From Anniella stebbinsi (lineage: Eukaryota > Chordata > Lepidosauria > Squamata > Anniellidae): a DNA stretch of 64,000 bases. Below, piece by piece: positions 5,749-51,706 of this stretch. Where the stretch lies: positions 74,659,763 through 74,723,762 of the forward strand of contig JARDYH010000007.1 in the NCBI GenBank assembly GCA_029215795.1, written 5' to 3'. Each line of letters starts with the position of its first letter. The first letter of the stretch is position 1. Position numbers and translations under genes: made by a program. The notes beneath the pieces were generated by a model. It made no database searches, was not told where the DNA came from, and saw nothing but the letters and a program-made list of their open reading frames with translations.

Positions 5749-5785
<37 letters not shown>

Positions 5786-12403: not shown

Positions 12404-12469
12404 ATGTTTCTCCATCTTGTGATTCCTGTCCTTCTCACCTTTGTCTTTTGCCCAAAGGAAAGCATATCG
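12404..12469 (+). CDS. Gene B signal-peptide exon
   Basis: ATG in context gaagccaagATG, 22 codons starting MFLHLVIPVLLTFVF (hydrophobic core) then CPKES, ending at a gtaagg donor in phase 0. This is the same layout as the first exons of genes C and D: TATA box, short 5' UTR and signal peptide in one exon. I found no convincing downstream exon on this strand before the convergent 3' end of gene D at ~20.3 kb. It is therefore either a gene with distant exons or an orphan first exon left by duplication. Confidence 0.55.
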
Positions 12470-19970: not shown

Positions 19971-20291
19971 GCATTGACAGAAGGTGTAATCTTAGAAACC
20001 CTTATAGGGGAGTATGTCTTACTGAATAAACATGCAGAAGCTATGAATTTCTCAAGCATCCAGAGGAGAAAACCCATCACTAATTAGCAACGTGGGAGAG
20101 AAGACAGGCCTTGGTTTAAAGCATTACAAGACCACGAGAGTCATGCTACTTATCTCCCTTAAGTATTGAATGTGGCTCAACATTGGGAACGACATATATA
20201 TCAAGAGCTAGGGCTCCCCAAGAAAGTGCCCCCATGTAACTACAGTTCCCAGAATTCTTTACAGGAAGTTCATGATGGTTGAGTGACTTAC

Positions 20292-20323
20292 CTCTTGTCT
20301 GCTTGTTACTCCTCCTCGTCAAC
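20292..20323 (-). CDS. Gene D probable last coding exon (VDEEE-stop)
   Basis: Acceptor tttttttctcatag, then GTT GAC GAG GAG GAG TAA in phase 0. A gtaagt donor follows 14 nt after the stop, so the 3' UTR may be spliced. No clear poly(A) signal found below it. Confidence 0.42.
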
Positions 20324-23300
20324 CTATGAGAAAAAAAGTAGGGGGGAAATTATACACGGTATACAAATGTAATAAATAAATAAATTGTTGACATTTTTTA
20401 TTGCCTTTCATAAAAACTAAGCATATTCTCTCCCTGGCTTGATGGAGGCCCTTGCAAAACATGTAGCAGTTTAAGCCAATGCGGTTCCCGGATCCTGCTG
20501 TGCTCAGCAATGGGTGCAAATCCAACATGCTGTGAATCAGACCAAGGATCCGTCTAGTCCAGGATTCTGTTCACACAGTGGCCAGCCACTTGTTGATGAA
20601 GAACTCACAAAAAGGACATGAATGCACTTCCTGACCATGTTCCCCAGCAACAGGTGTACATAGGCTTACTGCCTCTGCTACTGGAGGCAGCACATAGCCA
20701 TCATGACTAGTAGTCACCAATAGCCCTTCTCCAGGAATTTATCTAAGCCTCTTTTAAAGTCATCCAAATTAATGGCCATCACTAGGTCTTTTGGTAGCCA
20801 AGTCCATAGTTTGACTATGCACTGTGTGAAGAAGTATTCCTCTTATCTGTCCCAAAACTCCCACTATCACCTTGATGGGATGAGGACCACGTGTGACAGA
20901 AATGACCCAGCTGATTTCCTAGGGAGAGGGGAAAGGCAGTGGCCAGCATAGGGACTTCTGGTACTCACCTGGTTTTGTGGTCTTCTGCGCCTGCCTCTCT
21001 GCAATGGAATGTCAGAAATTAATGAGCCATAATGATACGGCTGACCTTAAGAGACAAAGCCACAAGGGGGCACATGGAGTTTTGCCTGCAACTCTTGTCA
21101 CACTCCCCCAGCTCTAGTTTCTAAAATGGACTTTTAGTGGGATGTATCCAACTTAAAATCATTGTGACCCTGTTCACATGACACACTAAGCCACACTGGT
21201 TAAGCATTTTGAGCTAAATATTATGGCTTAGTGTGTTGTGTGAACCATGCCTACCATGGTGGCTACAGAACCATGGTTTAAACATGCTCACTAATCATTT
21301 GCTGCAAAGGGGTTAGTGGCCTAATTATGGCTTAGCATGTTGTCCGAATGGGCCCTCTGAAATGGGAGGGGGAAATACCTGACCTCAACCTATGGTGGCA
21401 TCTAGAAAAGGGGGCTCTGATACATATTTTAAAGTTATATGGTCATAAGACATTCTTCAGAAACCCAAGCCATAAACCTAGTTCAGTTCAGTTGTGTAGT
21501 TTGTGTGGAGTAACAGGAACATCTACTCTGGATACAACCCAACGAGGGCTGCAAACAGATATCAATAGCATGTAATTTATTAATGTGTCAAGTTTTCTTT
21601 TCAGTATGGGATAATTAAACATATATTCTGAGTGGCAGATAAAAATCCAGATTATAAAGATACTTAGTGAGTATCACAGCCAACCAGATTGGCATTCTGC
21701 TTCAGCTTGTAGCCTAACACAGTAAAGCACATTCAGCCTTGAACACCAATGGTGAAAGAGGGGGAAAATGGGAAACACTGGATTGAAGCAACTAGCAAGT
21801 TTCTTGGTTAAAAACCTTGAGCAGGAGCAGTCAATTTTCAAAAGTTATTCCCTTAGAGATGTACAACTATTCTGAGCTGGTTCTGGTACCAGTATCCAGG
21901 GGCAGGGCATAAAACTGCCTTGGATGTAGAAACGATTATTTATGGCCCCAGCTCAGATTTCCTTGAACTAAAGGAATTGCCCCTGCTAAGATTATGGCAT
22001 GGTCATGTAGCAAGGCCAATTGCAATGTAGATAGCACCAAGCTGCTTGGAGATATCATATTTTATTCAATGGGGGGGGGGGGGAGACAAGGGGCAGGATC
22101 AAAACATCACCTGTGATTCATGTGATTCACTTGTTGTTGTGACCAAGAATGTGTCTCATGGATTATGAAGTGCCTTTCATCTCATCATCCGCTGATTGTG
22201 AAATTGATTTCCCCACACCCCAATTTCTTGAATTTGCACGAATTCACAAATTCGCACTTGCAAAAGTGTACATTTTGGGCTGATTTTTTAAAAATGTATT
22301 TTTCTACAAGTAAATTTGCATAAAATTCTGGAAAGTAAAAAAAAACAAAAAATGCTCTTCAAGTGTGCAGAATCTGTGGGAATTAGGAAAAGCCGGTCCT
22401 CTGTGGAACCTGTGGATCGGAATCATAGGAATTCAAAATAATTTGATCCCATTGTGGATTTCTCCAACATCCCTAGTCATGATGCATGGCAGCCCAGCAT
22501 GCATATAATGCATGAAAAGGGCAAATTACATTTGCGGACACAGTTCTGGAAGAAAACAGGGCTATTCCCTGTGGATCATCTTTACCCTTTTCTTTGATCG
22601 ACGACGTCCTCCACCCTGAAAAGAAGAAAACATTTACAAATGAATTCTTGTCTTGTGAAAACAATGCTAACATTGCCCTTGGTCTCAACATTTCCCACAG
22701 CTGTTCTACAGCGTTGTAGTGGGACCAGGGATTGCAGGTTTGAAGCACCAGGTTGTTTTGATTAGCAGGGAAGACAACATCAACTGAGAGAGCCATTGTG
22801 GTTAGAGAGCTGGACTGGAACCTGGGAGATCTGGGTTCTAGTCCCCACTCGGTTATGAAATCCACTGGTTGACTTTGGGCCAGTCACTGTCTCTCAGCCT
22901 AACCTACATCACAGGGCTGTTGTGAGGAAAATATGGAGATGAGGGTTATATGAGCTGCCTTGAGTTCTTTGCATAGAGATGTCATGGACATCTGGTTGGG
23001 TCCAGGAATCCAGCAGGTAGCCCCCCCTTCCGGATCCCTGGACATGGCTCACACAGTCATGGGATGCTCATGAGTGCACTCATCAAGTGCTGTGTGGTCC
23101 ACAAACACCTGCAGCTACCCGCTTCTCCTTGTGAACTGGCTGCAAACCAGCATTTTCTGTACAACCTGGGCTCCCAAAAATGTGCAGCAATTTGTGGATA
23201 TTTTTGGTGGACACATTTTTGCTCTCATATTTGGAGCTTCGAATAGGGCTTGCTTATAAATCCCTAGTGTCACCCGAGGTGATGGGGGCATCATCACATA

Positions 23301-23921
23301 CCATTCTGTGGATGCTCACCTGGAAGTCTGCTTGCCAAATGAAGGGTGCTGGACCACAAGAAAATTAGCAAAGGCAAGCCCATAAAATAAATAAATAAAT
23401 AAATAATGACTAAACGTAATAAATGAAGGAGAGTTTCTTACCATTTGACCACCTTTACCAAGGAGACTTGACAGTTTCTATAAGTGGGGGGGGGAAGACA
23501 CCACCATCATAAATATGAACAGCAATCTCAATTCTTGGATAACCAAATCCTTATGTAAGCAAAAGGAAATTCCCGTGATGAACAAAAAGAAGGTATCAAC
23601 CTTTTTTTCTTTTCATATCAACGGGAAAATTGTGCATTTCTCTGCACATTGTTTAAATGTGCACACTTTCCCCCTTTCAATTAAAGAATGAAATGCATTA
23701 AAAAACAAAAACAAAAGAGCATTTTAAAGTGCATATTTCTTTTTTAAAATGCATTTTCAGTATGTGATTGCAAGTTCAGGAATATCCGGTCTTTTTCACG
23801 AAAATGCATTTGCACTTATGTTCAGGGTTGCAAACAGGGGAAGTCCTGATGATTTGTGAACAGAAACATAATGCTTGCTCATCCCTACCCAACACTGGAT
23901 GCATCAGCTGGATAGGGATGT

Positions 23922-23966
<45 letters not shown>

Positions 23967-26900
23967 CCAAACAAGCAAGATGAGAGGAAGACATTGGGAT
24001 CATCCAAAATAACTAAGTAAGATTATTTGCAAATTATAGTATTGCCCCAAAAGAACTCCAAATGGAGGGCTTCTTACCGACATAGGGTTGCCTCCTCCTC
24101 CTCCCCCTCCAAGCAAAGCCAATGGGTTCTACAAAGAAAGGAAAACATAGTCATCCTTCTTTAATACCCAGGTTCATGCTTTCATCTTGGATATGCCTTC
24201 TGCGATTAATTTGCTGCTGCCTCTAACTGCAGCCATGATGATTTGCTCCAGCAACGGGTTGCCAACCTGTGTTAACTGCTAAAGTCCACAAGAAGACCAG
24301 TAATAACCTGGCAGGTTTCCCTGAAAGAAAGACTTGCTGCCACTATCTGGCCATGCTTCCCAGAATCCTTTGCAGCATGCTGCAGTTCCACAACAAATCA
24401 AGCAAGCTGATGGGAAAAGAGCATGCTAACGCTGGAAAATTTGAATGCCTCTTGTAATGTAGTTAGGTTTCAGGCTTTTATGGTTTTAAATTTTGTATAT
24501 TAGTTTCTAAATGTTCAATGTTTTTAATTTATGTGAACTGCCCAGAGAGCTTTGGCTATGGGGCAGCATATAAATGCAAATAATATTAATAATAATAAAA
24601 GTGCTTGTGACTAGCTAAGAGCTCTTGGAGGGAAGGCATGTCCCTCCTAAATATCTCTCCAGGCTTTTTTAGAGTTGTTTTGGACTGTTTACTAGGGATC
24701 TGCTCGGCCAAGATTATCGTAATGCATTGTTATTGGAAATTCCAGTAGAATTTTTTTTAGGATCCAATAATATTGTAGGTATTCTGTATTGGATCGGATA
24801 TCCAATATTTAATTTGGAGTATTTTGCCCAATAGAGTTGCTTTTTGAGACAGAAATGCCAATAATTTCTGTATTTTAAAAGTTAGAGACTTGAAACTTGG
24901 TCACAGTGCTTATGGAATATGCCTAAGTATGTGTATGAAATTTCAGAACAATCCCTCCAACCCTATATTTTATATGATTTTTTAAAACAATTGTCACACT
25001 TTGAAAGCAATTGGGAGGCCCAGTCAAATATAGAACGATCTTTAAAAGATTCATATAAAATCAAGGGTTTGAGCAATTGCTCTGAAATGTAATACACATG
25101 ACTAGCAATAGACAAGCTGCATTGGGGAAAAAAATCAAGTTTCAAACTTTTAAAATGATGAAGTTACTGGGGGTGGGGCTTTTGCGGGATCTATAACTTT
25201 TTTATTTTTAAAGATAGAGACATGCAACTTGGGGAGCTAGGACTAGCAACATCCCATCTGCAAAGTCCAACAGGTTTCATGTCTCTATCTTTTAAAATAA
25301 AAAAGTTACACCCATTGAAGTTCTTTAAGGAAAGTGTATGTGTCTACCGTCTAATACTTTTTAATATAACTTTTCTATTTTTTAAGTTAGAGACTTCAAA
25401 GTGTCCCCTTCAGAACAATCCCTTTACCCCTGTATTTTATATGAATTTTTGAAAGATCATGCAACTTTTTGACAGTTCTGAATGCACGTGGCTTAGCTGT
25501 CAGACAGACAGAGCTGTCAAAAGTTGCACGATCTTTAAAAAAAATCATATAAAATACAGGGGTGGTGGGATTGTTCTGAAATGTCATACACATCCTTAGG
25601 CATATACCATAAGCATTGTGACCAAGTTCAAGTCTCTAACTTTTAAAACACAGAAGTTACAGGCTTATTTAGATGGCAGTCTGATGATCTGAAAAAATCC
25701 AATATAATCGGACTGAAATTTTTTGGATCTGATAATTATTGGGGGTATTTCTATTGTATCGTTATCGTTAATCGGATATCCGATAACGCCATTATTGGAT
25801 TGTTATCGGACATCGGAATGATACTATACACATCCCTACTTTTTACTATACCTTCATTAGTTTATGAGTTTTGTTTTCTGGTGGGGTGGTGGTGGTAAAT
25901 TGCCTTGGTTAGTTTCAGACAGGTGGTATATGAATAAAAACATTAACAATAAAATGAAAATGTCAGCAGAAATAAAAATAAAAATAAATTCCTAGCTTGC
26001 TGAGGATGTATTGGGGATTTATTGAGGTGAGAAAAAAATGAAGAGGTCAGCCACATTTCAGAATGGCATCTGGCTTCATGACAAGATGAGCACTGAGACT
26101 GAAATGGAAGTTTCCTTACCAAACCTCCTCCTCCTCCTCCTCCTCCAAGGCCCTACAATGGAGAAAAACAGTGTCAACCTTTCCCATGCACATCCTCATG
26201 GACCTGACTGACATGGCTTGATTTGTTATTGGGTGAAGAAATCTGCCTGTTGCTCTGAAAAGAGGTTTTATTTGCCCCAGACTCTGCTACCATCTTGGGA
26301 CCCTCCCCATGGCATTTTTAATTTCAAGATGGTGACATTTCTATTTGAGGCAGCTTTTCATTTTCCTTTATTTCTACAAGAAAAAGGCCTCTGGCATGCT
26401 CAAATTCTTTGTTATTGTTGTTGTTGTTGTTTTAAAACCATTCAGGGAAACCGTCGGGGTTCCTCAGAAGTCTCCGAGGAGATCAATAATGGCAGGCAAG
26501 TTTCTCTGAAAGACACCTTTCACACCATGACTCTAGAATATTTCCCAGAATGCTCTGCAACATCCAGGGCTTCCACAGGAGTCAACAAAAGATTCCCTAG
26601 CTGAACAGGCAAGCTGATGCAGAAAGAGCTCCCTCCAGCCAGAAGGCTTGAATGCAACTGGTATAGTATTCTGCTCTTGACATGCATGTGATTGGCAGCT
26701 CTTTCTGGGTAGGGCTGTCCCTGTCTAATGTTCATGCAGTTCCTAGCTTGCTGAGGGCTCGGATTGTATTTGGTGACTCTCATCGCGATTCTCTCGGGCT
26801 TCCCGAAATGTTTCCAAATGACTCCTGCCTCCACAACAATGAGAACATAAGGACTAGAACTCTAGTCACATTCCAAACATGTCGGGATATCCTATGGAGA

Positions 26901-28091
26901 AGGGGGAGTGAAGCCATGTTTCTAGTCCTATTCCCAACCATGGATGCCCTGCCCCATTGCCATCCGTTCATCCAGTGTGGATTTCTGCAAAGGGGAGCCA
27001 ATGCGCAAGCAGCTACTCATGCTTAGGCAATGCTGTTTGTAGACACCCTCACTGAATGCCCAGATCGCAAGTGGGATCTGGGCATCATCAGGAGTGGGGA
27101 CTGTGATACAGTCCCACTACATCTCCTCCACATTATAATCCTTAATGAGAGATAACACTGGTATAAGACTAGAACAGATGGTAGTTTACTAACACTCTGA
27201 CACAGGATGAGCAACCTCACCCCTGCCTATGCCACTTGCTGCTCGCTGCTCACCACACTCCCACTGGTTGCCTGACCCTGTTGGCCATGTGTGGTGAACC
27301 ACCGAACAGTCATTGGACACCTGGTGAGTGGCGCGCGGCGTCCACTCCTCTGCCAAGCTAAACAATGGCATTTCAGCCGTTTCTGTAAAGAGGCCGACTT
27401 ACGCTAAATTACAGGTGTAAATGTTAAGTTTGCATAAATTAGGGTGACCATGTGAATAGGAGGACAGGGCTCCTGCAGGAGTTACACTAGAGTGACCAGA
27501 TACAAAAGAGGGCAGGGCTCAAAAGAGGGAATTTCACCAGGTGCTGCATGCATACAAACAACACCTGCTGAAATTCCCTTTTCAATACAACCGTTACAGA
27601 TACAGGAGCCCTGTCCTCCTTTCCATAGGGTCACCCTACAAATGGGCTTCTTTGCAACCACCGTTTGAGCAAAATTGCTCTTTACGGAAAACTCTGAGCC
27701 TCCATTTTGCAACTTTGCAGACCAGCAGGGACCACTGTGCTTGTCCGACTTGGCTCCAGTCTGGACACTCAAACTAGCAAGAACTTACCGAGCATCAAGC
27801 TCCAACTGGATGCTCACGACATCCCTACTCTGACACACGGCCACCATTCCCAAGCAAACTCCCAAAGGTCTACAAGAATTTTGGAATGCTAACAGAACAG
27901 AGACTATAATGGGTAACTTCTTACCGAAAGAGCTCCTAGATTTTCAAACATGGCCTGAAAGGGAAAAAAATGTGTTCAAGTTTGTTTTAACTGTGCATGT
28001 TTTAATTTTTAAAGCTGCATTGAGTCCCAGTATTGGGGAAAAGGTGGGATATAAATAAATGAAGAAGAAGAAGAAGAAGAAGAAGAAGAAG

Positions 28092-28122
<31 letters not shown>

Positions 28123-31100
28123 TCCTCTTTTTTTCATGGTAGACAGGAAATGAAATTTCACTCAAATGTCACAACACTACAGAATGTTAATCAACTTTGG
28201 GGATGGTGAACTCCATCCATAATTTGCTTTTGAAATAGAACAGTTCACTAATTTTACATCATAACTTTAATTATCAACATCAACAACATAGTTTCAGGAT
28301 GACTTCTGACTTCATAACAAGAATTAGCCCTGCTAGTTCCTTACCAAAGGATTACCGCCGCCTTCTTCATCACCACCTCCAATTCCACTAAGCATAGACA
28401 GCAAGCCCTAAGAGGAAGAAAAGAGCATCATCATCACCAATGCAACATTATCTATGTCTTCATCTTGGCCATGGGCTACATCAGGTATAGGCAATCTGGT
28501 GACCTCCAGATGTTTTGGACTAGTTATCAAGAGCCATACTGGCCTTGTCTTGTGGGAGTTGTGGTCAAACATCTCTGGAAAGCACCTTAGTGCATATCCC
28601 TGCTCCTGTGATGAGGTTTTTGGTATCCCAGTCATCCGTGAAGGGGTTGTAGGTGTCTCAGGTGATGCTACCATGTTGTGACTCTCTCTGGGGATCATGA
28701 GTGGATGGGTGCTATTGCAGTCATGTCTAGCTTGTGGGCTCGCGGTGTCTAGGTATCGTGCATTCCAGTACTTTGTCCCTCAGCTGTGGAATTCACTCCC
28801 CCTGCCACTGTGTTTGACCAAGAGTTTGGAGGAGTTCCAGAAAGGTTTGAAACCCTTTCTTTTTCAATGGAGGGGGTTGGCTGGTTTTTCCTGAGATAGA
28901 GCATGCAGATGGTCCTTGTGGTGGCCACGACACATTTTATATGGGTTTTATTTTAAGGTTTTAAATCCAGTTAAGGTATTTTATTAGAATTATTGCTTTT
29001 ATTGCATTTTTGTAAATTGCTGACCTATTCTATCTCATGTACAGTGCTTTGTTAGAAAGCGCAATATAAATCATTATTATTATGATTATTATTAATTTCC
29101 ATTGGGGCATCTGGTTGGGCACTTCAGAAAAGAATACTGGACTAGAAAGCTTTTGGTATGATATTGCATGGATGTTCTTAATTTCTCCTAAAGCCGAAAA
29201 ACATTTCACAATGATAGCAATACAGGCACTAGAATGGATAGTTCCTTGCCACAAGACCCTGAAGTTTCCCCTATAATGAAAAAGAAGAGCATTCAAGCTT
29301 CGTTTTCATGGTAGGTATGAAATGAACACTTGCCCAAATGTGATAACATGGAATAATTCATATCAACTTTTAAAATTTTGAACCTCTTTTGGAGTTGGCT
29401 TTTGAGATTCAGCTTCAACTGAACACTTTAAAGCATTACATTTTAACGGTTTGAGGAAATTTAAGGCAATAAGGGTAGATGGTAAATTGCTATATTAAAA
29501 CCCTTTTCCCAATTTTCCATCCCAAATCTGGTTCTTGATAGCGCTAAAATAAACTTCAAATTCAGAAATGTTGGAGTTGAAGTTCTGCCTTAGGCCTTCT
29601 GTTGGATATATACCTTTTAATCTTTGTGTGTGTGTGTAAAACACTCTTTGGTCGTGCAAATTTATTTAAACTCTTTTTGAAATCACCCTTCAATTGTATT
29701 ACCAGCATGATTTCAATAAGAAAACAACAGAAATAACAAAACGATTGTTGAAAAGTGTGTTTGCATGTGCATGCATTTGTGTAGAATGTGTGGACAGCAT
29801 GAAGCTGTCCACCACCACCACTACCAGTGATGGCATTCAGCTGAAGGGCAGTGGGGAGAAACTCTCCATTTAAAAATACACATTTCTGGCTTGCCATCAA
29901 AATTCAGCAATGGTGGTCAGGACTATTTATCCTGAAACAAGCCTCTTTATCCAATGGTGCTTTGCCACCAAATTGCAGTGGCATATCCCGAATTTCTGCT
30001 TTCAAATGGAGTCTTCCCCCTGCCGTACCATTGCCACACCATCACAGTAATATGTTCCATGCCAGATGGAATGAGAACAGAGGGAGTCTATGTTGGGGTT
30101 TGGGGCAGGGGCAATACTGCCCTCAACCCCCAGAAGTTGCCCAGACTGGGTATTGATCTCTGTGTGTGTGTACACCGTAGGGCTGAATTCACGTTCAGAG
30201 GAATTCTTGAGGGGGTATGTTCTAGTGATGGGTGGAGCTGAATGGAAAAAGGGGTTGGGCTAAATATTCCCAAAAAAATCAGCAGATTTGAATTTAAAAC
30301 AGTTCTGCCTGTAACTGACCCTTAGCAGAGGCATTGCAACCTTAAGAATGTGGAAAACGATGACACAGACAAAATGGGACACCACAAAATGATTGGTGGT
30401 TGGGAGAAAAGGGGTGGGAGCAGGAGAAGTGGGTGGGGCAATCCGAGAACCCAATCTGAAATCTCAGGGCAAAGCTTACACCCCAGATGCCTGTTGAGGG
30501 GGGTCCTTTAGGAGGTGGGGCTTAGAGCCCCATGAGGGATGGGATGGATTGAGGTGCCCCATGGGAAAAAATGGGCACACAAAAGTGAGAATGGGAATGT
30601 TATTAGCTTCTTAAGGGATTCCTCAATACCAACAGAAGGGACAGATTACAGAAGGTCCAAACAACCCAGAAAACCTCTGCCAAGCAGCCCTGTGAGAGTG
30701 CAATGGTGTCAGAGAAGAAGGCTTCTTTGCCAACATCGCAAGCCACTTTGTGCAGACTCATGTTAGGTCAAATTTGCTGCAAGTCTAGCCATCTTCCTTC
30801 TCACTTTATTATCCTCAGCACCCCAGAATCCTGTTGGATCATCATCCTCCTGTCCCAGTGAGAAAGGAAAGCCACATCAAGGGTGCTCTACAGGCCTGGA
30901 CGATGATACATTAGAACAGGTCCATGGTTGATACGGTGGCCAGGAAACAGGTCTACCACCAACAAGGCAATCACAGCATGAACATTTAACATCCCTCAAA
31001 GTTAACATCTTTGGTATCCTCAACATTAAATCCTAGACCACCTCTACCAACTCAGGTGGAGACCTGTTGGGGACTGGAGTGGGACGGGTGGTTAAACCAC

Positions 31101-36736: not shown

Positions 36737-36781
<45 letters not shown>

Positions 36782-42700: not shown

Positions 42701-42977
42701 TTCCCCACATCACTGCTGCAACAGCAAAGTTTAGCAAATTCAGTGGTGGGTGGACCAGGAGAAGAAGAATGCCCTAGTTGGATTATGAATCCTCAATCCC
42801 TGGACTTTGGCCAGCCTTGATACATTTATTTATGTATTTATTTACATATTATTTTTATTTATTTATTTATTTATTTATCTATCTTATATAGATTTTTCCT
42901 CCTAGGAAATAATCCCCCCTCCTCTCTATTTTATTCTCACAACAACAACCCTGTGAGGTAGGTTAGGCTGAGATAGA

Positions 42978-43041
<64 letters not shown>

Positions 43042-46000
43042 ACGTGTATGTGTGTTTGTGTAAAGCCAGGGCTATGGATGTTCTTTCTTCCTGAGGGCTA
43101 AATTCAAATTTGGAGAAGTCTTGAGGGATTGCATTCAAGGATAGATGGACTTATCCATGTCTGATTCATTTGGATGCTCACCCTGCCACTGCTAACATCT
43201 GCATCCACTCACGGTGCCACAGTAGCTTCTTCTGAGGCTCAGCAAGCCTCCGACAAGATCCGAGCCCATCCCCTCTTGTCCGGAGCCTCCATGGTGCACA
43301 GCAATGCAGGCTTTGGAAATCATGTATTTCCCCTGTTGCGCACATGGGGCCATTAAAGGTGCCATTTATGCAATGGGGGAAATACGTAATTTCTAGATCC
43401 CCATGATGGAGGCTCCAGATGTGGACAGATACCTGCTGGGTGCTTGTTGGACCATGCAGGTGTCCAAACCGTGGAGAGGGTGAAGGCGAGTCTGTCAGAC
43501 TCTGGGACCCAGTCGGACACCTGCGATATCTCTAAACAACACAAATTATCTTGTTTTAAGTTAACTTCTGACTTCATGACAAAATAGTCCTGACATAGAC
43601 ATGGATATTTCCTCTCCTTAAGACCTTTGCCACCTTCTTCGCCATCACCACCACCAACTGCTGAAAGCATAGGCAGCAGACTCTACAAGGAAGAAAAGAG
43701 CATCATCCTCTGTAATGCACATCATCATGATTTTGTCTTGGTCATGCATTAGATCAGAGTAGACAAGCTGTTGCCCTCCAGATGTTTTGTACAAAATAAT
43801 CACAATCATAATCAATCCCAGTTTAATTTTAAGATGTTTTTGATAATGCATTTGTTTTTATCTGTTTTAATGGTTTATCTATTTTATTGTTTTTATATTT
43901 ATATTTATTGTTCTTCCCTGCCTCGATCTGGATGGAGAGGCGGGTTAGAAATGAAATAAATAAATGATAATAAATAATAATAATAATCATGTTCTAGAGC
44001 AGTGGTGTTCCAACAATGATTGAGGAATGCTAGGATTCCTTGGAAGTCCTTGAGAAGATCAGCAATGGGGAGCAAGTTCCCCTGAAATACAGCTTTCACA
44101 CTACTGTCCTAGAGTATTTCTCCCAGAAACCTTTGGAATATACAGGACTTCCATGGCAGAAGTGAAGGGAATTTTCATCCAAATGGGCAAATCACCCGGC
44201 ACTCTACTGAGAAGCAGGCCACAAAGCCTGCTTCTCAGTAGTAAGGAAACAGCAGACAGCAGTGGACGGTCCCGGCAGGGAAGTGGGGACCTCCCCCTGC
44301 CTTCCTCCCTCCCCCCCACTCACGCTCCTTACCAGCCAGGGCCAGCCACTGCCGGCTGCTGCCGGCCGCTGCTTCAGTACTACTGAGAAACAGGCCTTGC
44401 GACCTGTTCCACAGTAGAGGGCTGGCACGCCGGGTGATGTCACAACTCGGGGTGCCATCGCTCTATTGTGGAACAAGCCACAAGGCCTGCTTCTCAGTAG
44501 TACGGAAGCAGCAGCAGGCAGCGGAAGGCCCTGGCAGGTAAGGAGTGTGAGGGAGGGAGGGAGGGAGGGAGGGAGGGAGGGAGGGAGGGAGGGGAGTTAG
44601 GTCCCCACTCACCTGCCACCATATTTTCCCCATAGACTTGCTTTGGGGGAAAGCTTTCTTTCCTTCAATGCAAGCCTATGGGGAAAATAATTCAAAATTG
44701 TGTTCGATTTTCTGATTTTTTCCAATTCAAAACGGACCAGAAAAAATCGTATGTTTGAAGGACTGCATCAGAATCAGACATCAGATGTCCGATTCCTCCG
44801 ATTATAATCGGATTCGGACATTGGATCTGATACGATGCACATCCCTACAACTAAGCCATTCTTCAGATATCTCAGGCCCAAACCATCAGTAGAGTTTGTG
44901 CAGTTTCTAACACAGCAAGCGTTCAAATTGTATTGGGAGGGAGTCCCTTAGGGTGATTCTATGTGCCTCCCAATAAAGACATCAGTAATGTTTTGGGATG
45001 AATTGCAACTTCACAATAGGAAGATCACAGAAGGAAATGAGAAAAGGTAACACACATCTTACCATAAGTCCACCGGCGCCGCCACCTCCAAGCAGAGACC
45101 CTAGATCCTACAAAAGAAAGCAAAGGTGTCAGTCTTCCTCTGATTAATACCTATGTGCATTCTGCTCCTATCTTGAGTATGTCATTTATGAGTTCCTGCA
45201 TTCTCTGGGCCAGGAAATCTTTGTCTTCTGACATGATATTGAGAGACAGGGATTGATTTAATTGCTGGGAAGTTGAGTTTCACATGCCAATTCTGTGATG
45301 ATCAAGTGTAACAAATATTTTGAGCATAAAGAAAATAGTCAAGATTCAGACAGTCAACATTCCCCAGGTGGAAATCTTATACTCTTAATTAGGGATGTGC
45401 ACTGGATTGGGTCCGATCCACGATCCGAATCTGATCCAGGGGAAATCGGATACAATTATCCAATTTCCGATCTTACCGCTGGATCATTCGATCCAATCCG
45501 ATCTGATCCAGAAAGGTTCCAATCCAGATCGGATGGATCGGAGGATCGGTGGGCGCCCGCTGGCACCTTCCGCCGCTTCCATTGGCGGGCGCCTGCCGAT
45601 GGAAGCAGACAGCGGGGGGGGGGGGGGCTTCCCTGGCGGGGCTGTCTGCTTCCATCGGCGGATGCCAGCGGGCGCCCGCTGATGGAAGCGGACAACAGGG
45701 GCAGGGGGCGGCGGACGGGAGCGGAAGTCCCCTGAAGGTAAGCAGGGGGGAGGGGCCCCCGCAGCGCATTTACCTTCCATGGCCATCCACTCCCGGCTGC
45801 TATCACGAGCAGGCTTCACGGCCTGCCCCTAGGTAGCGCACCAGGTGATCATCACCTGATGATCACCTGGCGCGCTACCTAAGGGCAAGCCGTGATGCCT
45901 GCTCGCAGTAGCAGCCAGCAGTGGACGGGAGCGGACAGCCACAGAAGGTAAGCAGGGGGAGGGGGAGGGGGCTTACCCACCCGGGGCCGTCCGCTTCCAT

Positions 46001-49000: not shown

Positions 49001-50919
49001 AGGGAGACTGGTGTCAACTGCCACCACCATTCCCAAAGAAATTCCCTGATCCTTCTGAACTCAGCTGCAATCCCCCTACTAGCTGGAGGAAAATGAACTT
49101 TCTGAAACTGTATGCAAATTTGGTCAAACGGCATTAACAAAGACACTAATGTATAAGCCTTTTTTAAAACACACACATAATACTTTAACTTTCTCCAATC
49201 TCTCTTCAGCTTCAGCTGTGTAGCAATCATTTTTTGACTGTGCTCTGTTCATTGATTTCACAGTGAGCTAAGAAAACTATGCAATGTTCTCTACCAGCAA
49301 AAGTTTCATAAATTGTGGGTATTTGTGTGTGTATGTGTGTGTGTATTTTTCCAGAGTGGGAGTGAGGGTGGGATCTGAGTCCATCAATGAGAGGGTGACA
49401 GAGCAGACAACATCTGACAATCTACAAAACATAGATGGACTAGATTAATCACAATCCACACATCCCTACTTATAGGGTTGTGTTTTTTTTTAATGAGGAT
49501 AAAATGGGTATGGGGAAGACCATGCAGGCTTCATTTGGCTCCTTAGAAGGGAAGGAATAGGAGACAGTAATAATCATCTTCTTCCCCGCTCTCACCCTTG
49601 AGTTATGGTTTTGGAGTAAAATAGCTGTTTCAGAAATTTAGCTTTATGTGGCTTACCGGCATCCCACCTTCATCGTCATCCCCGGCATCCTGCAAAAAAA
49701 AAACACCATTTATTCAGGTTCATGACTGTCACTTAGAGATGGATGGTTTCAATTAGTGATGGATGCAGACATGTTTGTTGGACTGCAACTCCCATTAACC
49801 CTTGTCATTGGTTATGCTGGCTGAGGATGATGGGAGTTGCAGTCCCACAACCTCTGCAGGGCCCCACGTCCCCCATCCCTGGTTTAAACAGTTGTAGAGA
49901 TGAGTCTAGAACATTGGTGTTGCCGGGTCTATACTTCTAAGTATTCTGGGAAATAGGTGCTCATTGCCTTTGAAATTGCACACATCACAGTCCTTCTTGC
50001 TGCGGATCTGCTGCTCAGCAGGCAAGAAGAGAAGGGAACTGCCGCTTCCAAGCCTCACCAAATCTTCTTCCATCCCTGCAGACCTTTCCTCTTTTCTCTC
50101 TTTCTATCTCTCTACTCCCAGCCTCTAGCCTTACTATTTCTCTCCATCCAAACCCTTCCCTCTCGAATTCTCTTCCTCCCTATCACTAGTTTTCTTCTTT
50201 CTCTCCCTTCCTAGCCCTCCTCTTTATCTCCTAATTATAATATTGTTTCTCTCCACTCCCAGCCTCTAGCCTCACTATTTATCTTCCCCACCTCTTTGCC
50301 CCACTGTTTCTCCTGACTCCTAGCTTCTAGTCTTGCTCTTTCTCTCCCCTCTCCCCTGTTGTCTTGTCATTTCCTCCCCCCAGCCTCTAGCCTCACTATT
50401 TATCTTCCTTTCACACACACCCTTTAGCTCACTTTTGACTAGCCAGGCCCCCACGACACCCCTTATATGACTAGTTTCGTCTTCCACAGCAGCTATTTTG
50501 GTGGTGGTGCCTATAGCAGTTTCTCATATTCCCAAATGTGACCACAGATCCAAAAATGTTGGGGACCCCCTGAGCTAGAAGCCATGGTGCTGAAGAGGCG
50601 GGTCCACACCACAGTTTGCGGCACAAGCTAAAGCCATCCCATGTGGTCCAATTCCATAACTAGCAGCATATGGTTCCCCTTTATGCATGCATGTGTGTAT
50701 TAATTATGAACCTGTTAAATCCAAATCAAAACAAAGATGTAGCATTAAAAGGTCAAACAATAATTCTATTTCTGATAGCTTGAAAAAACTTCCTCTTTTC
50801 CTTACAAATGAAACTGTGAGCACATCTTTGACCATCAATTCAACTTGGACAAGATGTCAAGAGGAACCAGAGACAATGGCCTTAGGTGGTGGATCCAGCC
50901 CTTGGGCAGCAAGCTGGCC

Positions 50920-50962
<43 letters not shown>

Positions 50963-51706
50963 CCAGGCCACCATTTTAATTTTCCACAATGGCCAAGAGT
51001 GATGCTACATCATTGTCCCAGGTCAGGCGTGCATTGATGTGTCCAACTAAATATGAATTGGGAACTTTAGGCAAGGATGACTCCCAAGATAAACCTGTTA
51101 AAAATATAGGTGGTGCAGGTAACATCATCCCATTGGATCCAGGCCAGGCTGGCAGGACCAGTATCAAGGTTAGGCATAGTCAGGCACCTGCCATGGGCCC
51201 ACACACCAGCAAGGGACCACTGTAAAGAGCCCCTTTGATCTGCTTCTCCTCTTCACCACTGCAACCTGCTTCTTTGTCTGCCTCTCCCTCTGTCCCAGAC
51301 AGTGATGTTTGTGAGAAGGAGAAGCAGCAGATGCTACTGCTTACTTGCTCACGGCCTCTCTGCCTGTTAAGCAAACAAGTGGTAGCAATGATGAGGAAGA
51401 GGATGAAGAGCAAGAGCAGCTGGTGACAACGGGGATGAGCAAGTAGACCCACTGAGGGAGGGCACCCATGGAGATTGTCTTGCCAAAGGACCCTCCAAAA
51501 TCTAGTGCTGGCGCTGCCTTCAGGCACACCAACCAAAGAGATACTCCAACCCATAAGACTCATTCTCTCTTACCCAACTTTGTGCCGGGACCACAAAGAG
51601 TAGAGCAGCCACGAAAATGAACTGCATCTTCTTTGCTGCTCTCGGACTCTTCCGGACTTTGATGTTCTTGCAGTGACATTATCCAGATCCACGGCTAGAT
51701 TTAATA
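20292..51706 (-). CDS. Gene D locus: secreted acidic Gly-rich precursor with basic tail (spliced)
   Basis: Family not recognised. On the minus strand I assemble a TATA-like box, a signal-peptide exon (MQFIFVAALLFVVPAQSW) and about 17 phase-0 exons of 15-78 coding nt, totalling about 269 residues. The N-terminal part is acidic and Gly-rich (DAGDDDEGGMP, DLGSLLGGGGAGGLM). The middle alternates LLPML + Gly/Asp/Glu exons with short GMMGNLKNLG-like exons. The C-terminal part is Gly-rich, then strongly basic (GGGRRRSKKR, RGRRRRPQNQ), then VDEEE-stop. Acceptors have long pyrimidine tracts (cttttcttccttgtag). Duplication of exon-plus-intron blocks built the middle. An acidic pro-region followed by a cationic C-terminus is typical of secreted host-defence peptide precursors, but that is only an analogy. 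Convergent with gene B, divergent from gene C. Confidence 0.72.
20530..20875 (-). mobile_element. CR1-clade LINE 3' end (antisense)
   Basis: From gaatcagaccaaggatccg (reverse of the tail) through gttccccagcaacagg, catcatgactagtag and atggccatcactagg. Standard reptile CR1-type 3' region in reverse. Confidence 0.7.
20969..20998 (-). CDS. Gene D exon RGRRRRPQNQ
   Basis: 30 nt, acceptor ttccattgcag, donor gtgagt, phase 0. Five Arg in ten residues continue the basic tail begun at 22.6 kb. Confidence 0.5.
22562..22615 (-). CDS. Gene D basic exon (GGGRRRSKKR; alternative terminal exon)
   Basis: Acceptor cttcttttcag. Reads GGGRRRSKKR, then either splices at AGG|gtaaag (exon 22,586-22,615) to the exons at 20.97 and 20.29 kb, or reads on as VKMIHRE to a TAG at 22,562-22,564. 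Both outcomes give a highly basic C-terminus. I cannot tell which is used. Confidence 0.58.
   Translation of the reverse strand, partial: GGGRRRSKKRVKMIHRE
22791..22975 (+). mobile_element. Sauria-type tRNA-derived SINE
   Basis: tRNA-like head with A-box-like gtggttagagagctgg and B-box-like gggttctagtcc, then gaccttgggccagtcact-like body and ctaacctacatcacagggc. This is the familiar squamate SINE with a LINE-derived tail. Confidence 0.75.
23442..23477 (-). CDS. Gene D exon KLSSLLGKGGQM
   Basis: 36 nt, acceptor ccccacttatag, donor gtaaga, phase 0. First Lys-containing Gly exon before the basic tail. Confidence 0.6.
23925..23963. repeat. (AC)n microsatellite
   Basis: Perfect dinucleotide run in a gene D intron. 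Confidence 0.9.
24078..24128 (-). CDS. Gene D exon NPLALLGGGGGGGNPMS
   Basis: 51 nt, acceptor cctttctttgtag, donor gtaaga, phase 0. NP motifs at both ends of a seven-Gly run. The downstream intron (gcttcccagaatcctttgcag) is homologous to introns at 26.5, 32.0, 37.7 and 44.1 kb. Confidence 0.66.
24470..24600 (+). mobile_element. LINE 3' tail (L2/CR1 type)
   Basis: atgtgaactgcccagagagc, tttggctatggggcagc, then (AAT)n. Same tail as 19,840-19,970. Confidence 0.55.
24693..25838. mobile_element. Non-autonomous hAT-like element, 1,146 bp
   Basis: Starts TAGGGATCTGC, ends ACACATCCCTA; flanks CTGTTTAC and CTTTTTAC (7 of 8). The interior has repeated 'tttaaagatagagacatgaaacttgg' phrases also found in the array at 34.5-35.15 kb. 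Confidence 0.75.
26120..26152 (-). CDS. Gene D poly-Gly exon (GL, eight Gly, L)
   Basis: 33 nt, acceptor ttctccattgtag, donor gtaagg, phase 0. The Gly run is a (GGA)7 trinucleotide tract, so length polymorphism is likely. Confidence 0.62.
27440..27638. mobile_element. Palindromic DNA transposon (TAGGGTGACCATG type)
   Basis: Starts TAGGGTGACCATG, ends GGGTCACCCTA; the interior matches the elements at 5.1 and 39.9 kb (gaaattcccttttc, ggagccctgtcctcctt). Confidence 0.65.
27925..27954 (-). CDS. Gene D exon AMFENLGALS
   Basis: 30 nt, acceptor tttccctttcag, donor gtaaga, phase 0. Homologous in position and flank to GMMGNLKNLG exons at 35.97 and 42.33 kb. Confidence 0.62.
28061..28121. repeat. (GAA)n microsatellite, about 20 units
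   Basis: At the 3' end of a SINE-like tail (gtgggatataaataaat). The antisense poly-Phe ORF over it is an artefact. Confidence 0.92.
28345..28407 (-). CDS. Gene D exon, GLLSMLSGI type
   Basis: 63 nt, acceptor tttcttcctcttag, donor gtaagg, phase 0. 21 codons: GLLSMLSGI, then GGGDEEGGG, then NPL. A shorter, diverged relative of the LLPML exons. Confidence 0.68.
28690..29095 (+). mobile_element. L2-type LINE 3' end
   Basis: ggaattcactccccctgcca, ggagttccagaaagg, then tgtacagtgctttgttag ... gcgcaatataaatcattatt: end of the RT region and tail shared with 46.4-48.8 kb. Confidence 0.55.
29250..29270 (-). CDS. Gene D exon GKLQGLV with GC donor
   Basis: 21 nt, acceptor ttcattatag, donor gcaagg, phase 0. 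The flanking intron is homologous to that of the GMMGNLKNLG exons. GC-AG introns are a known minor class, so this could still splice. Confidence 0.45.
29300..31688. other. Gene D intron with an old diverged copy of the duplicated block
   Basis: Segments near 29.65-29.75 (actctttggtcgtgc) and 30.15-30.25 kb (ctgaattcacgttcagagg) match 36.07 and 36.83 kb in diverged form. 30.5-31.1 kb holds unidentified, repeat-like sequence. No exon seen. Confidence 0.45.
31745..31819 (-). CDS. Gene D exon, AMLPMLLGGGG type (copy 1)
   Basis: 75 nt, acceptor ttttcttctttgtag, donor gtaagg, phase 0. 25 codons: AMLPMLLGGGG, DGDGNEE, then GGGEGPM. Identical to the exon at 37,358. Confidence 0.7.
32700..33204 (+). 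mobile_element. Probable gypsy LTR (copy 1), left edge uncertain
   Basis: TATA-like gggtatataaacag near 32,754 and an end ...ccttgaca directly before a primer-binding site. The left boundary cannot be set because the whole block is duplicated. Confidence 0.4.
33205..33224 (+). mobile_element. Retrotransposon primer-binding site, tRNA-Leu-like
   Basis: TGGTGTTAGCGGTGGGATTC; compared from memory with the complement of a vertebrate tRNA-Leu 3' end (CCA included) it differs at about two positions. The copy 2 equivalent is 38,811-38,830. Confidence 0.55.
33546..34680 (+). pseudogene. Ty3/gypsy gag-protease remnant (copy 1)
   Basis: Capsid-like region with an N-terminal charged coiled coil (KQKEEETKLEWERI), then a helical capsid part. 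A CCHC zinc knuckle (C-X2-C-X4-H-X4-C) lies at 34,333-34,374, and an aspartic-protease motif LDSGAD is near 34,560. It is broken by frameshifts near 33,650 (one base fewer than copy 2) and 34,030. After the protease motif it runs into the ~150-bp tandem repeats. No pol follows. Inserted antisense to gene D. Confidence 0.75.
34540..35155. repeat. Four tandem ~150-bp repeats
   Basis: Phrases gcatgaaacttggccacatt ... gagaaatt ... aaacataggtgcaggca recur near 34,593, 34,744, 34,905 and 35,051. The same phrases occur inside hAT-like elements (24.8-25.6 kb, 59.3 kb). Open antisense frames over them are shadows. Confidence 0.65.
35164..35249. repeat. Hairpin with 19-bp arms and an inner 18-bp palindrome
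   Basis: Arms 35,164-35,182 and 35,231-35,249 (CATAAGTTCCAAAACAGTG inverted). The inner perfect palindrome GTTTGACAGCTGTCAAAC is at 35,212-35,229. Copy 2 has it at 40,489-40,574. Probably a transposon end. Confidence 0.7.
35432..35509 (-). CDS. Gene D exon, KLLPMLSAG type (copy 1)
   Basis: 78 nt, acceptor ttttcttccttgcag, donor gtaagg, phase 0. 26 codons: KLLPMLSA, a Gly run with DGEE, six Gly, then EALM. Confidence 0.7.
35974..36003 (-). CDS. Gene D exon GMMGNLKNLG (copy 1)
   Basis: 30 nt, acceptor ttttccttgtag, donor gtaaga, phase 0. Copy 2 reads GMMGKFKNLG. Confidence 0.66.
36739..36784. repeat. (AT)n(GT)n microsatellite
   Basis: Counterpart of the longer tract at 42,978-43,040 in copy 2; the two copies differ in repeat number. 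Confidence 0.9.
37358..37432 (-). CDS. Gene D exon, AMLPMLLGGGG type (copy 2)
   Basis: 75 nt, same sequence, acceptor and donor as at 31,745-31,819. Confidence 0.7.
38811..38830 (+). mobile_element. Primer-binding site (copy 2)
   Basis: TGGTGTTAGTGGTGGGATTC, one base different from copy 1. Confidence 0.5.
39140..39910 (+). pseudogene. Ty3/gypsy gag remnant (copy 2)
   Basis: Same capsid-type region as copy 1 and open for 154 codons. It is then broken at an A-run near 39,610 and by an in-frame stop near 39,852, and truncated by the MITE at 39,911. Lacks the zinc knuckle and protease. Confidence 0.75.
39911..40143. mobile_element. Palindromic DNA transposon fragment inside gag copy 2
   Basis: Starts TAGGGTGACCAG; interior as in the element at 5.1 kb. 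On its right the sequence resumes at the position equal to 34,817 in copy 1, so about 500 bp of gag is missing. Confidence 0.65.
40777..40854 (-). CDS. Gene D exon, KLLPMLSAS type (copy 2)
   Basis: 78 nt, acceptor ttttcttccttgtag, donor gtaagg, phase 0. 26 codons: KLLPMLSAS, GGGDDEE, six Gly, EALM. Confidence 0.72.
41066..42069. mobile_element. Non-autonomous hAT-like element, 1,004 bp (copy 2 only)
   Basis: Starts TAGGGATGTGCAC, ends GTGCACACCCCTA; perfect 8-bp flank repeat TTGAGAAC (41,058-41,065 and 42,070-42,077). The empty site with a single TTGAGAAC is in copy 1 at 35,713-35,720. Confidence 0.93.
42330..42359 (-). CDS. Gene D exon GMMGKFKNLG (copy 2)
   Basis: 30 nt, acceptor ttttccttgtag, donor gtaaga, phase 0. 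Confidence 0.66.
42978..43040. repeat. (AT)n(GT)n microsatellite
   Basis: Longer allele-like version of 36,739-36,784. Confidence 0.9.
43617..43682 (-). pseudogene. Gene D decayed LLPML exon, donor lost
   Basis: Acceptor ttcttccttgtag and 22 codons beginning SLLPMLSAVGGG and ending GGKGLK. The donor position reads gagagg where the paralogues have gtaagg. Start of a third, partial tandem block. Confidence 0.6.
44185..44847. mobile_element. hAT-like element, left end missing
   Basis: GC-rich inverted repeats of the same type as at 14.1 kb and a right end GCACATCCCTA at 44,847; no left terminus or target duplication. Includes a (GGGA)n run at 44,549-44,594. Confidence 0.65.
45063..45107 (-). 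CDS. Gene D exon DLGSLLGGGGAGGLM
   Basis: 45 nt, acceptor tgctttcttttgtag, donor gtaaga, phase 0. Confidence 0.66.
45390..46397. mobile_element. Non-autonomous hAT-like element, 1,008 bp
   Basis: Starts TAGGGATGTGCAC, ends GTGCACACCCCTA; flanks CTCTTAAT and TTCTTAAT (7 of 8). Confidence 0.82.
46406..48300 (+). mobile_element. L2-type LINE 3' part, split by a hAT insertion
   Basis: Remnant RT C-terminal coding (gttgcagctagtgcaaaatg; KALNNMGPGYLREH near 47,877; WNSLPLEVR near 48,050) and a tail ending in aataaataaataaata. Interrupted at 47,141-47,720. Confidence 0.65.
47141..47720. mobile_element. Short hAT-like element, 580 bp
   Basis: Starts TAGAGCTGTG, ends CACAGCTCTA; perfect flank repeat TTGGTAAC (47,133-47,140 and 47,721-47,728). 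Different terminal sequence from the TAGGGATGTGC family. Confidence 0.88.
48301..48815 (+). mobile_element. Second L2-type LINE 3' fragment
   Basis: aaaggaattgcactagctgcc through gagagggccttctctgtttt to an aataaataaa tail; parallel to the preceding copy. Confidence 0.55.
48874..48940 (+). mobile_element. tRNA-derived SINE fragment
   Basis: A-box-like tgctcagtggtagagcac and B-box-like gtgttcaatcc with tRNA-like spacing. No CCA-ready stem, so this is a SINE head and not a tRNA gene. Confidence 0.6.
49657..49689 (-). CDS. Gene D exon 2 (DAGDDDEGGMP)
   Basis: 33 nt, acceptor gttttttttttgcag, donor gtaagc, phase 0. First exon after the signal peptide, strongly acidic (five Asp/Glu). Confidence 0.68.
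50085..50420. repeat. Pyrimidine-rich imperfect minisatellite
   Basis: cccagcctctagcctcacta recurs near 50,117, 50,260 and 50,380 in a CT-rich tract, with a diverged copy near 50,324. Lies in gene D intron 1. Confidence 0.6.
50920..50962. repeat. (TTA)n microsatellite
   Basis: Perfect trinucleotide run in gene D intron 1. Confidence 0.9.
51574..51627 (-). CDS. Gene D exon 1, signal peptide
   Basis: ATG in context gcaaagaagATG, MQFIFVAALLFVVPAQSW, then gtaaga in phase 0. Hydrophobic core FIFVAALLFVVP followed by AQS, a plausible signal-peptidase site. 5' UTR and signal peptide share one exon, as in genes B and C. Confidence 0.72.
51699..51706 (-). promoter_or_regulatory. TATA-like box of gene D (TATTAAAT)
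   Basis: 79 nt upstream of the ATG on the minus strand; spacing matches genes B and C. Confidence 0.5.

What the first reader, a model, noticed from the sequence alone, without database searches (positions are those of the whole stretch)
20292..51706. Undescribed-looking secreted precursor made of ~18 phase-0 micro-exons with acidic Gly-rich body and Arg-rich tail
The minus strand holds a signal-peptide exon and a chain of frame-compatible exons with good splice sites. Charge runs from acidic (DDDE, DDEE, NEE modules) to strongly basic (RRRSKKR, RGRRRRP) and back to VDEEE. I know no named vertebrate family with this layout. A peptide precursor with a neutralising pro-region is one reading; an extracellular matrix or mucus protein is another.
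Basis: partly seen in the sequence, partly recalled or inferred. Interest (0 to 1): 0.88.

Follow-up and report, generated by a model that had tools for sequence, protein, structure and literature searches.

The report
Lizard micro-exon secreted-protein gene cluster
The stretch holds a real-looking lizard gene for a small secreted glycine-rich protein stitched from about 17 tiny exons; it belongs to a cluster of such genes beside a fatty-acid receptor gene, where the mouse keeps three skin-secretion genes.

Summary
On the minus strand, 51627-20306, a signal-peptide exon, 15 internal phase-0 micro-exons (30-78 nt) and a stop exon make a 262-aa chain. Strong acceptor-donor pairs 24-90 nt apart are multiples of three in 14 of 14 cases at score >=19. 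Fifteen open micro-exons reach score 18, against a mean of 0.61 in 100 shuffles and 1 on the other strand. Exon 20918-20871 runs into a repeat; one copy (43682) has lost its donor.

The gene is not alone: 314 kb hold nine alike first exons, eight with a micro-exon chain. Beside them lies a free fatty acid receptor 2/3 gene; TMEM147, a GAPDH-family gene and HAUS5 follow. In the mouse, Ffar2 and Gapdhs-Tmem147 flank Sbsn-Dmkn-Krtdap, the SSC; suprabasin is reported from 0 of 19 sauropsids.

Best reading: a fast-evolving squamate counterpart, by position, of the SSC; this gene secretes an epithelial matrix protein. No protein relative was found, KRTDAP's model finds no match over its cut-off, and the block is rearranged. 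Expression is untested.

The parts
51574..51627 (-). signal-peptide exon, coding part: MQFIFVAALLFVVPAQSW; TATA-like TATTAAAT begins 79 nt before the ATG
   Evidence: donor score 7.3
49657..49689 (-). micro-exon DAGDDDEGGMP
   Evidence: acceptor 13.1, donor 9.6
45063..45107 (-). micro-exon DLGSLLGGGGAGGLM
   Evidence: 12.3 / 8.3
43605..43682 (-). stretch matching the KLLPM-type exon with the donor lost; not part of the predicted product (its lower end is nominal)
42330..42359 (-). micro-exon GMMGKFKNLG (unit 1, type c)
   Evidence: 14.1 / 8.3
40777..40854 (-). micro-exon KLLPMLSASGGGDDEEGGGGGGEALM (unit 1, type a)
   Evidence: 12.0 / 9.1
37358..37432 (-). micro-exon AMLPMLLGGGGDGDGNEEGGGEGPM (unit 1, type b)
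   Evidence: 13.5 / 9.1
35974..36003 (-). micro-exon GMMGNLKNLG (unit 2, type c)
   Evidence: 14.1 / 8.3
35432..35509 (-). micro-exon KLLPMLSAGGGGDGEEGGGGGGEALM (unit 2, type a)
   Evidence: 13.7 / 9.1
31745..31819 (-). micro-exon AMLPMLLGGGGDGDGNEEGGGEGPM (unit 2, type b; identical to 37432)
   Evidence: 13.5 / 9.1; 0 of 75 differences
28345..28407 (-). micro-exon GLLSMLSGIGGGDEEGGGNPL, older relative of the a/b exons
   Evidence: 13.1 / 7.6; 68-76% DNA identity in matches over exon and intron edge
27925..27954 (-). micro-exon AMFENLGALS
   Evidence: 14.1 / 7.2
26120..26152 (-). micro-exon GLGGGGGGGGL
   Evidence: 10.3 / 7.6
24078..24128 (-). micro-exon NPLALLGGGGGGGNPMS
   Evidence: 11.4 / 7.2
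23442..23477 (-). micro-exon KLSSLLGKGGQM
   Evidence: 9.2 / 8.3
22586..22615 (-). basic micro-exon GGGRRRSKKR
   Evidence: 12.9 / 5.6
20969..20998 (-). basic micro-exon RGRRRRPQNQ
   Evidence: 7.5 / 12.8
20292..20323 (-). stop exon VDEEE* with a donor at 20291 (3' UTR probably spliced)
   Evidence: acceptor 12.8, donor 11.5
31679..44190 (-). internal tandem duplication, copies mostly 5.3-6.4 kb apart, that multiplied the c-a-b exon unit
57585..64000 (+). divergent neighbour gene G2 (first exon MTMLPLVATLFLVVSVHSL; exons KLAV, VNEELPVINPIDPNLSD, KLEEVPEL; continues beyond the window to a (GK)n exon ending at 70129)
   Evidence: first exon related to ours, z 8.5-9.0
12404..12469 (+). first exon G4 (MFLHLVIPVLLTFVFCPKESIS); no convincing micro-exon chain follows it
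1384..8226 (+). micro-exons of neighbour gene G5 (GAFPPMP repeats, ADHNLD, HPHFHHDNHAE)

Best explanation
The feature is a protein-coding gene in a squamate cluster of genes of one plan (TATA-like box about 80 nt before the ATG, signal peptide in the first coding exon, then phase-0 micro-exons of low-complexity sequence) beside FFAR2/3. The cluster is the positional counterpart of the mammalian stratified-epithelium secreted-protein complex (SSC: SBSN-DMKN-KRTDAP). The product is a probably disordered, Cys-free secreted protein of about 245 residues in which Leu/Met-rich stickers alternate with acidic Gly-rich spacers, with a polybasic stretch near its end. Most likely it is secreted by differentiating cells of a stratified epithelium (skin, mouth or oesophagus) and self-associates into an extracellular granule, mucus or cornified-layer matrix; the basic stretch would bind acidic bodies of neighbouring molecules or surface glycans and lipids. 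Shown: exon architecture, internal exon duplication, nine alike first exons (eight with a chain), relatedness of most of them, FFAR neighbour. Inferred: transcription, secretion, disorder, SSC correspondence, tissue, self-association, role of the basic stretch.
For: Exon excess over shuffles and over the other strand; lengths divisible by three without an open-frame filter; duplicated exons that stay in frame; nine first exons in 314 kb, 9 of 9 with a TATA-like word starting at -76 to -84 and 8 of 9 with AAG before the ATG; ours related to G2 (z 8.5-9.0) and in 6 of 8 pairs above the maximum (4.2) of 99 control pairs with chance signal-peptide-like exons; FFAR2/3 ORF about 20 kb from the first exon of G1; TMEM147 family only at C7:75.23 Mb, GAPDH family at C7:75.245 (also C7:103.47), HAUS5 at C7:75.38; mouse order Tmem147-Gapdhs-Sbsn-Dmkn-Krtdap-Ffar2 (passage of PMC12847941). 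G2 and G4-G9 have the orientation to FFAR that Sbsn, Dmkn and Krtdap have in that table.
Against: No match to KRTDAP over the cut-off (PF15200: 4 matches, best E 2.6, all on C2 and C3), and none of the six chains scanned in Pfam hit it. No relative in 5.8 billion proteins, in which squamate FFAR was found. GAPDH-family gene and TMEM147 lie on the far side of FFAR, not beyond the cluster as in mouse, and FXYD lies beyond HAUS5, so the block is rearranged. Our gene and G1 point the other way from the mouse SSC genes. Ours is not clearly related to G4 and G5 by first exon, and the split halves score lower. Between the recent exon copies 4 codons differ by a change of residue and 3 silently, and the exons are no more alike than their flanks for types a and c: no sign of purifying selection, though the numbers are tiny. 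No expression evidence.
Confidence: 0.57

Rival explanations
1. A lizard-specific secretory cluster for an exocrine gland (femoral or precloacal, oral, oviduct), which came into the SSC position later and not by descent.
For: No sequence similarity to KRTDAP and no protein relative; the block is rearranged.
Against: Adjacency to FFAR2/3, TMEM147, GAPDH family and HAUS5 on the same chromosome within about 0.6 Mb of FFAR, largely matching orientation.
Confidence: 0.2
2. A peptide precursor: the acidic body neutralises a cationic peptide released at RXRR-type sites of the tail.
For: Net -22 body followed by +11 over two exons; RXRR-type motifs at residues 248 and 250; G2 likewise has acidic exons before a (GK)n exon, and G8 holds basic exons.
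Against: The basic stretch is 20 aa without Cys; the acidic exons are duplicated while the two basic ones are not; the stretch is followed by VDEEE.
Confidence: 0.13
3. An SCPP-type mineral or milk-type gene (phase-0 exons, acidic).
For: Phase-0 micro-exons and a stop exon followed by a donor.
Against: The signal peptide is probably in exon 1, with a TATA-like box 79 nt before the ATG; no S-x-E motif in 262 aa; FFAR/TMEM147 surroundings, which is not the SCPP locus as I recall it.
Confidence: 0.04
4. A decaying gene: a once functional chain that is no longer expressed.
For: One exon copy has lost its donor, large recent duplications, no annotated relative, 4 replacement against 3 silent codon changes between copies, neighbour G4 shows a first exon without a chain.
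Against: Fifteen internal exons with good sites and open frame, 13 of them at score >=18, no in-frame stop in the joined chain; note that the model was built from such exons.
Confidence: 0.06

Closest known systems
SSC: suprabasin, dermokine, KRTDAP (mouse chr 7, human 19q13)
   Same: Cluster of genes for probably secreted, low-complexity proteins beside FFAR2; same chromosome block with TMEM147, GAPDH family and HAUS5.
   Different: No KRTDAP match over the cut-off; SBSN and DMKN were not compared by a model; nine first exons instead of three genes; many micro-exons where human SBSN has five exons (passage of PMC7831088); GAPDH-family gene and TMEM147 on the other side.
SCPP genes (amelotin, caseins and kin; features recalled)
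   Same: Phase-0 small exons, secreted, acidic, fast evolving.
   Different: Signal peptide probably in exon 1, no S-x-E sites, other locus (recalled).
Elastin, silk and other Gly-rich matrix proteins (recalled)
   Same: Alternation of hydrophobic and Gly-rich modules carried by small exons.
   Different: Acidic, Leu/Met-rich, no similarity hit.

Membership tests
SSC (SBSN-DMKN-KRTDAP) | adjacent to FFAR2/3 | tested here: met
   intronless ORF at window coordinate 132856-133833, minus; PDB FFAR3 1.6e-81, FFAR2 7.6e-81, FFAR1 1e-36; best protein Elgaria FFAR3-like, 90%
SSC (SBSN-DMKN-KRTDAP) | other flank GAPDHS-TMEM147 | tested here: inconclusive
   same chromosome, about 0.43-0.45 Mb beyond FFAR and so on the FFAR side of the cluster; the flank on the other side was not identified
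SSC (SBSN-DMKN-KRTDAP) | sequence similarity to KRTDAP | tested here: not met
   PF15200 best E 2.6, none on C7; no Pfam family up to E 1 for the 262-aa chain; five sibling chains gave two sub-cut-off chance-level hits to other families, best E 0.068
SSC (SBSN-DMKN-KRTDAP) | sequence similarity to SBSN or DMKN | not tested
   no model used; the general protein search with our chain gave no hit
SSC (SBSN-DMKN-KRTDAP) | secreted | tested here: inconclusive
   hydrophobic N-terminus, best 9-residue mean 3.3; no signal-peptide predictor available
SSC (SBSN-DMKN-KRTDAP) | expressed in stratified epithelium | not testable with these tools
   needs RNA-seq
SCPP | signal peptide in exon 2 after a non-coding exon 1 | tested here: inconclusive
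   TATTAAAT at -79 suggests that the signal-peptide exon is exon 1; the transcript start is not mapped
SCPP | S-x-E phosphorylation sites | tested here: not met
   0 matches in 262 aa
Cationic peptide precursor | cleavage site before a mature cationic peptide | tested here: inconclusive
   RXRR-type motifs at residues 248 and 250, processing untested

The most novel reading that the evidence does not exclude
The SSC is not a mammalian invention: an ancestral amniote cluster of secreted epithelial genes beside FFAR2 survives in squamates, where it has radiated into at least eight micro-exon genes that duplicate exons as sequence modules and so write new low-complexity matrix proteins (acidic Gly/Leu, (GK)n, NGGN/NVYAAAPG alternation, Pro/Gly/Phe). 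The window gene and its divergent neighbour G2 could form a charge-matched pair of matrix proteins.
Probability: 0.45. Interest if true: 0.82.

Novelty: new variant of a known kind. Interest (0 to 1): 0.72.

Why it matters
A 2021 review counts 0 of 19 sauropsids with suprabasin and calls it a likely mammalian-specific orphan gene (passage of PMC7831088). A squamate cluster in the same place would push the origin of this epithelial complex back to early amniotes, would explain why sequence searches miss it, and would give a set of natural low-complexity secreted proteins that evolve by exon duplication.

Tried and rejected
Chance chain of exon-like stretches: rejected. Exon 20918-20871: rejected, its end and donor lie in an interspersed repeat. 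Exons 44675 and 44530: left out; the first resembles stretches seen again at 46218 and 14795 (by eye), the second is long and repeat-like by eye. SMGC/MUC19 idea: one literature search (listing), dropped once the FFAR/TMEM147 surroundings were found.

Literature on a sauropsid SSC: 'suprabasin' + 'reptile' and 'dermokine' + 'lizard' occur together in 0 papers of the held library. Other searches were seen as listings only: 12 of 9,467 shown, none of the 12 with dermokine or suprabasin; 8 of 8; 15 of 50; 5 of 4,787, none with dermokine; 8 of 5,501; 5 of 179, none with either name; 6 of 21. No title shown describes a sauropsid SSC. The library holds open-licence papers only, so this is weak. Passages, not whole papers, were seen of PMC7831088, PMC2893200, PMC12847941 and PMC2394760.

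NCBIfam scan of the FFAR ORF: nothing, a prokaryote library. The genome-wide search for relatives of our first exon and of the whole chain did not complete, so the counts are for the 314 kb read. One search served only to place the window.

Full report
What was checked. The window is C7:74659763-74723762 of a 1.89 Gb genome in 91 contigs. A neighbouring receptor gene is 90% identical to one of Elgaria multicarinata webbii, an anguid lizard, so the source is probably an anguimorph lizard; this is inference.

The chain. I scored splice sites with simple human-like weight matrices recalled from general knowledge. On the minus strand a signal-peptide exon (51627-51574) is followed by DAGDDDEGGMP, DLGSLLGGGGAGGLM, two copies of a three-exon unit (GMMG..KNLG, KLLPMLSA..EALM, AMLPMLLGGGGDGDGNEEGGGEGPM), then GLLSMLSGIGGGDEEGGGNPL, AMFENLGALS, GLGGGGGGGGL, NPLALLGGGGGGGNPMS, KLSSLLGKGGQM, GGGRRRSKKR, RGRRRRPQNQ and VDEEE*. 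All 15 internal exons of this model are multiples of three and phase 0, which the scan required.

Is it more than chance? Non-overlapping open phase-0 exons of at most 90 nt with a combined score of 18 or more: 15, against 0.61 on average (maximum 3) in 100 dinucleotide shuffles and 1 on the other strand. Thirteen of the 15 are in the model (list); the two others touch repeats. A test without the open-frame filter agrees: of pairs 24-90 nt apart, 17 of 19 at >=18 and 14 of 14 at >=19 have lengths divisible by three, against 1 of 4 and 1 of 2 on the plus strand. Copies are not independent, so the binomial values printed there overstate the case.

How the exons arose. Segments mostly 5.3-6.4 kb apart repeat between 31.7 and 44.2 kb. 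Between copies the c exon differs at 2 of 30, the a exon at 5 of 78 and the b exon at 0 of 75 positions; 4 codon changes replace a residue and 3 are silent. For types a and c the exons are no more alike than their flanks. So there is no sign of purifying selection since the duplication, but the numbers are too small to decide. The 28407 exon is an older relative, 68-76% identical over exon and intron edge. A further copy at 43682 has lost its donor.

The neighbours. I read 150 kb below and 100 kb above the window, 314 kb in all. Nine first exons with a hydrophobic start and a phase-0 donor stand out: G9 -139144, G8 -108348, G7 -71714, G6 -43490, G5 -13124, G4 12404 (all plus), ours 51627 (minus), G2 57585 (plus), G1 112778 (minus), in window coordinates. 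Eight are followed by a chain of phase-0 micro-exons (by eye; those of G5-G7 are weaker); G4 is not and is kept for its first exon. The scan also listed other candidates, which I left out by eye; eleven of them served as controls. All nine have a TATA-like word starting 76-84 nt before the ATG, and 8 of 9 an AAG just before it. Aligned from -130 to +85, ours scores z 9.0 with G2, 4.9-6.5 with G1, G6, G7, G8 and G9, 4.1 with G5 and 2.5 with G4. Control maxima: 3.13 over 200 random stretches and 4.2 over 99 pairs with chance signal-peptide-like exons. So relationship is supported for six of eight pairs and open for G4 and G5, which are themselves close to G6 and G7. Split into promoter and exon halves, ours scores lower (with G2 about 4 and 7-8; with the others 0.7-3.9 and 1.2-5.1); no matched control was run for the halves.

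The place. About 20 kb beyond the first exon of G1 lies an intronless receptor ORF, L037:8856-9833 minus, whose best solved relatives are FFAR3 and FFAR2, with FFAR1 far behind. TMEM147 (PF09767) matches only at C7:75.227-75.233 Mb; the GAPDH family at C7:75.245 and C7:103.47; HAUS5 at C7:75.380-75.389; FXYD at four places from C7:75.925 to 76.043 and two on C2. That the gene at 75.245 is GAPDHS is inferred from its place. A mouse table in PMC12847941 (passage) gives Haus5, Pmis2, 2200002J24Rik, Atp4a, Tmem147, Gapdhs, Sbsn, Dmkn, Krtdap, Ffar2, Ffar3, Ffar1. The lizard cluster touches FFAR as the SSC does, but GAPDH-family gene and TMEM147 lie on the FFAR side, so at least one rearrangement separates the two. 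G2 and G4-G9 have the same orientation to FFAR as the mouse SSC genes; ours and G1 do not. The lower flank of the cluster was not identified.

Membership. The KRTDAP model finds nothing above its cut-off in the genome, and no chain scanned hits it. I therefore do not call any of these genes SBSN, DMKN or KRTDAP. The claim is positional correspondence, with common descent as the most likely but unproven cause.

Relatives. Two searches of 5.8 billion proteins gave none: 7990 candidates scored with the whole chain at E <= 1, 1144 with residues 1-66 at E <= 10. The same collection holds FFAR from many squamates, so squamate proteins are present; but gene finders often miss chains of 30-nt exons (general knowledge) and poly-Gly words crowd such searches, so absence is weak evidence. 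The siblings were not searched there.

Function. The mature chain is 36% Gly, 14% Leu, 8% Met, no Cys, pI 4.4, with a basic stretch near the end. Alternating Leu/Met clusters and acidic Gly spacers look like sticker-and-spacer sequence. The neighbours too are low-complexity ((GK)n in G2; alternating NGGNVDQTDTFGNNGVGGNGNG and NVYAAAPG exons in G1; Pro/Gly-rich G8 and G9). This suggests secreted matrix-forming proteins of an epithelium; the step is inference. Basic exons also occur in G2 and G8, which keeps the precursor reading open; I raised it from 0.10 to 0.13 and lowered the main reading from 0.60 to 0.57 when checking the draft. A structure prediction was not run, because a low-complexity chain without relatives would not give a usable model.

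Verdict. Very probably a real and unusual gene, best seen as part of an undescribed-looking squamate cluster in the SSC position.

Noticed in passing
window coordinates 112778 to 75267, minus (L024-L028): Gene G1: about ten 66-nt exons (NGGNVDQTDTFGNNGVGGNGNG type) and nearly as many 24-nt exons (NVYAAAPG), largely alternating, all phase 0; the 22-aa repeat looks amyloid-repeat-like by eye.
   Followed up: partly
window coordinates -139144 to -119968 and -108348 to -84541, plus (L010-L015): Genes G9 and G8: long runs of Gly/Phe/Gln/Pro-rich phase-0 micro-exons such as GGFGGQQPPRPPQ and GSFGGPPPPPP.
   Followed up: partly
20307-20293 minus and 57564-57578 plus: The 15-mer AACAAGCAGACAAGA occurs both at the stop codon of our gene and in the probable 5' UTR of the divergent neighbour G2; may be chance or a shared element.
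   Followed up: no
18438-19593: Satellite, 242-bp unit, 4.8 copies, 96% matches.
   Followed up: no
33479-34442 plus: Retroelement-like ORF and zinc-knuckle-like stretch in an intron of our gene (by eye); observed only.
   Followed up: no
window coordinates 121787 and 126948, minus (L036-L037): Reverse-transcriptase-like ORFs between G1 and the FFAR gene (by eye).
   Followed up: no
12404-12469 plus: G4: first exon related to those of G6 and G7 (z 15-17) but no micro-exon chain found behind it; perhaps a gene remnant.
   Followed up: partly
-71714 and -43490 plus (window coordinates, in the lower flank): First exons of G7 and G6 are near-identical, z 48-51, so whole genes as well as exons seem to be multiplying.
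   Followed up: partly
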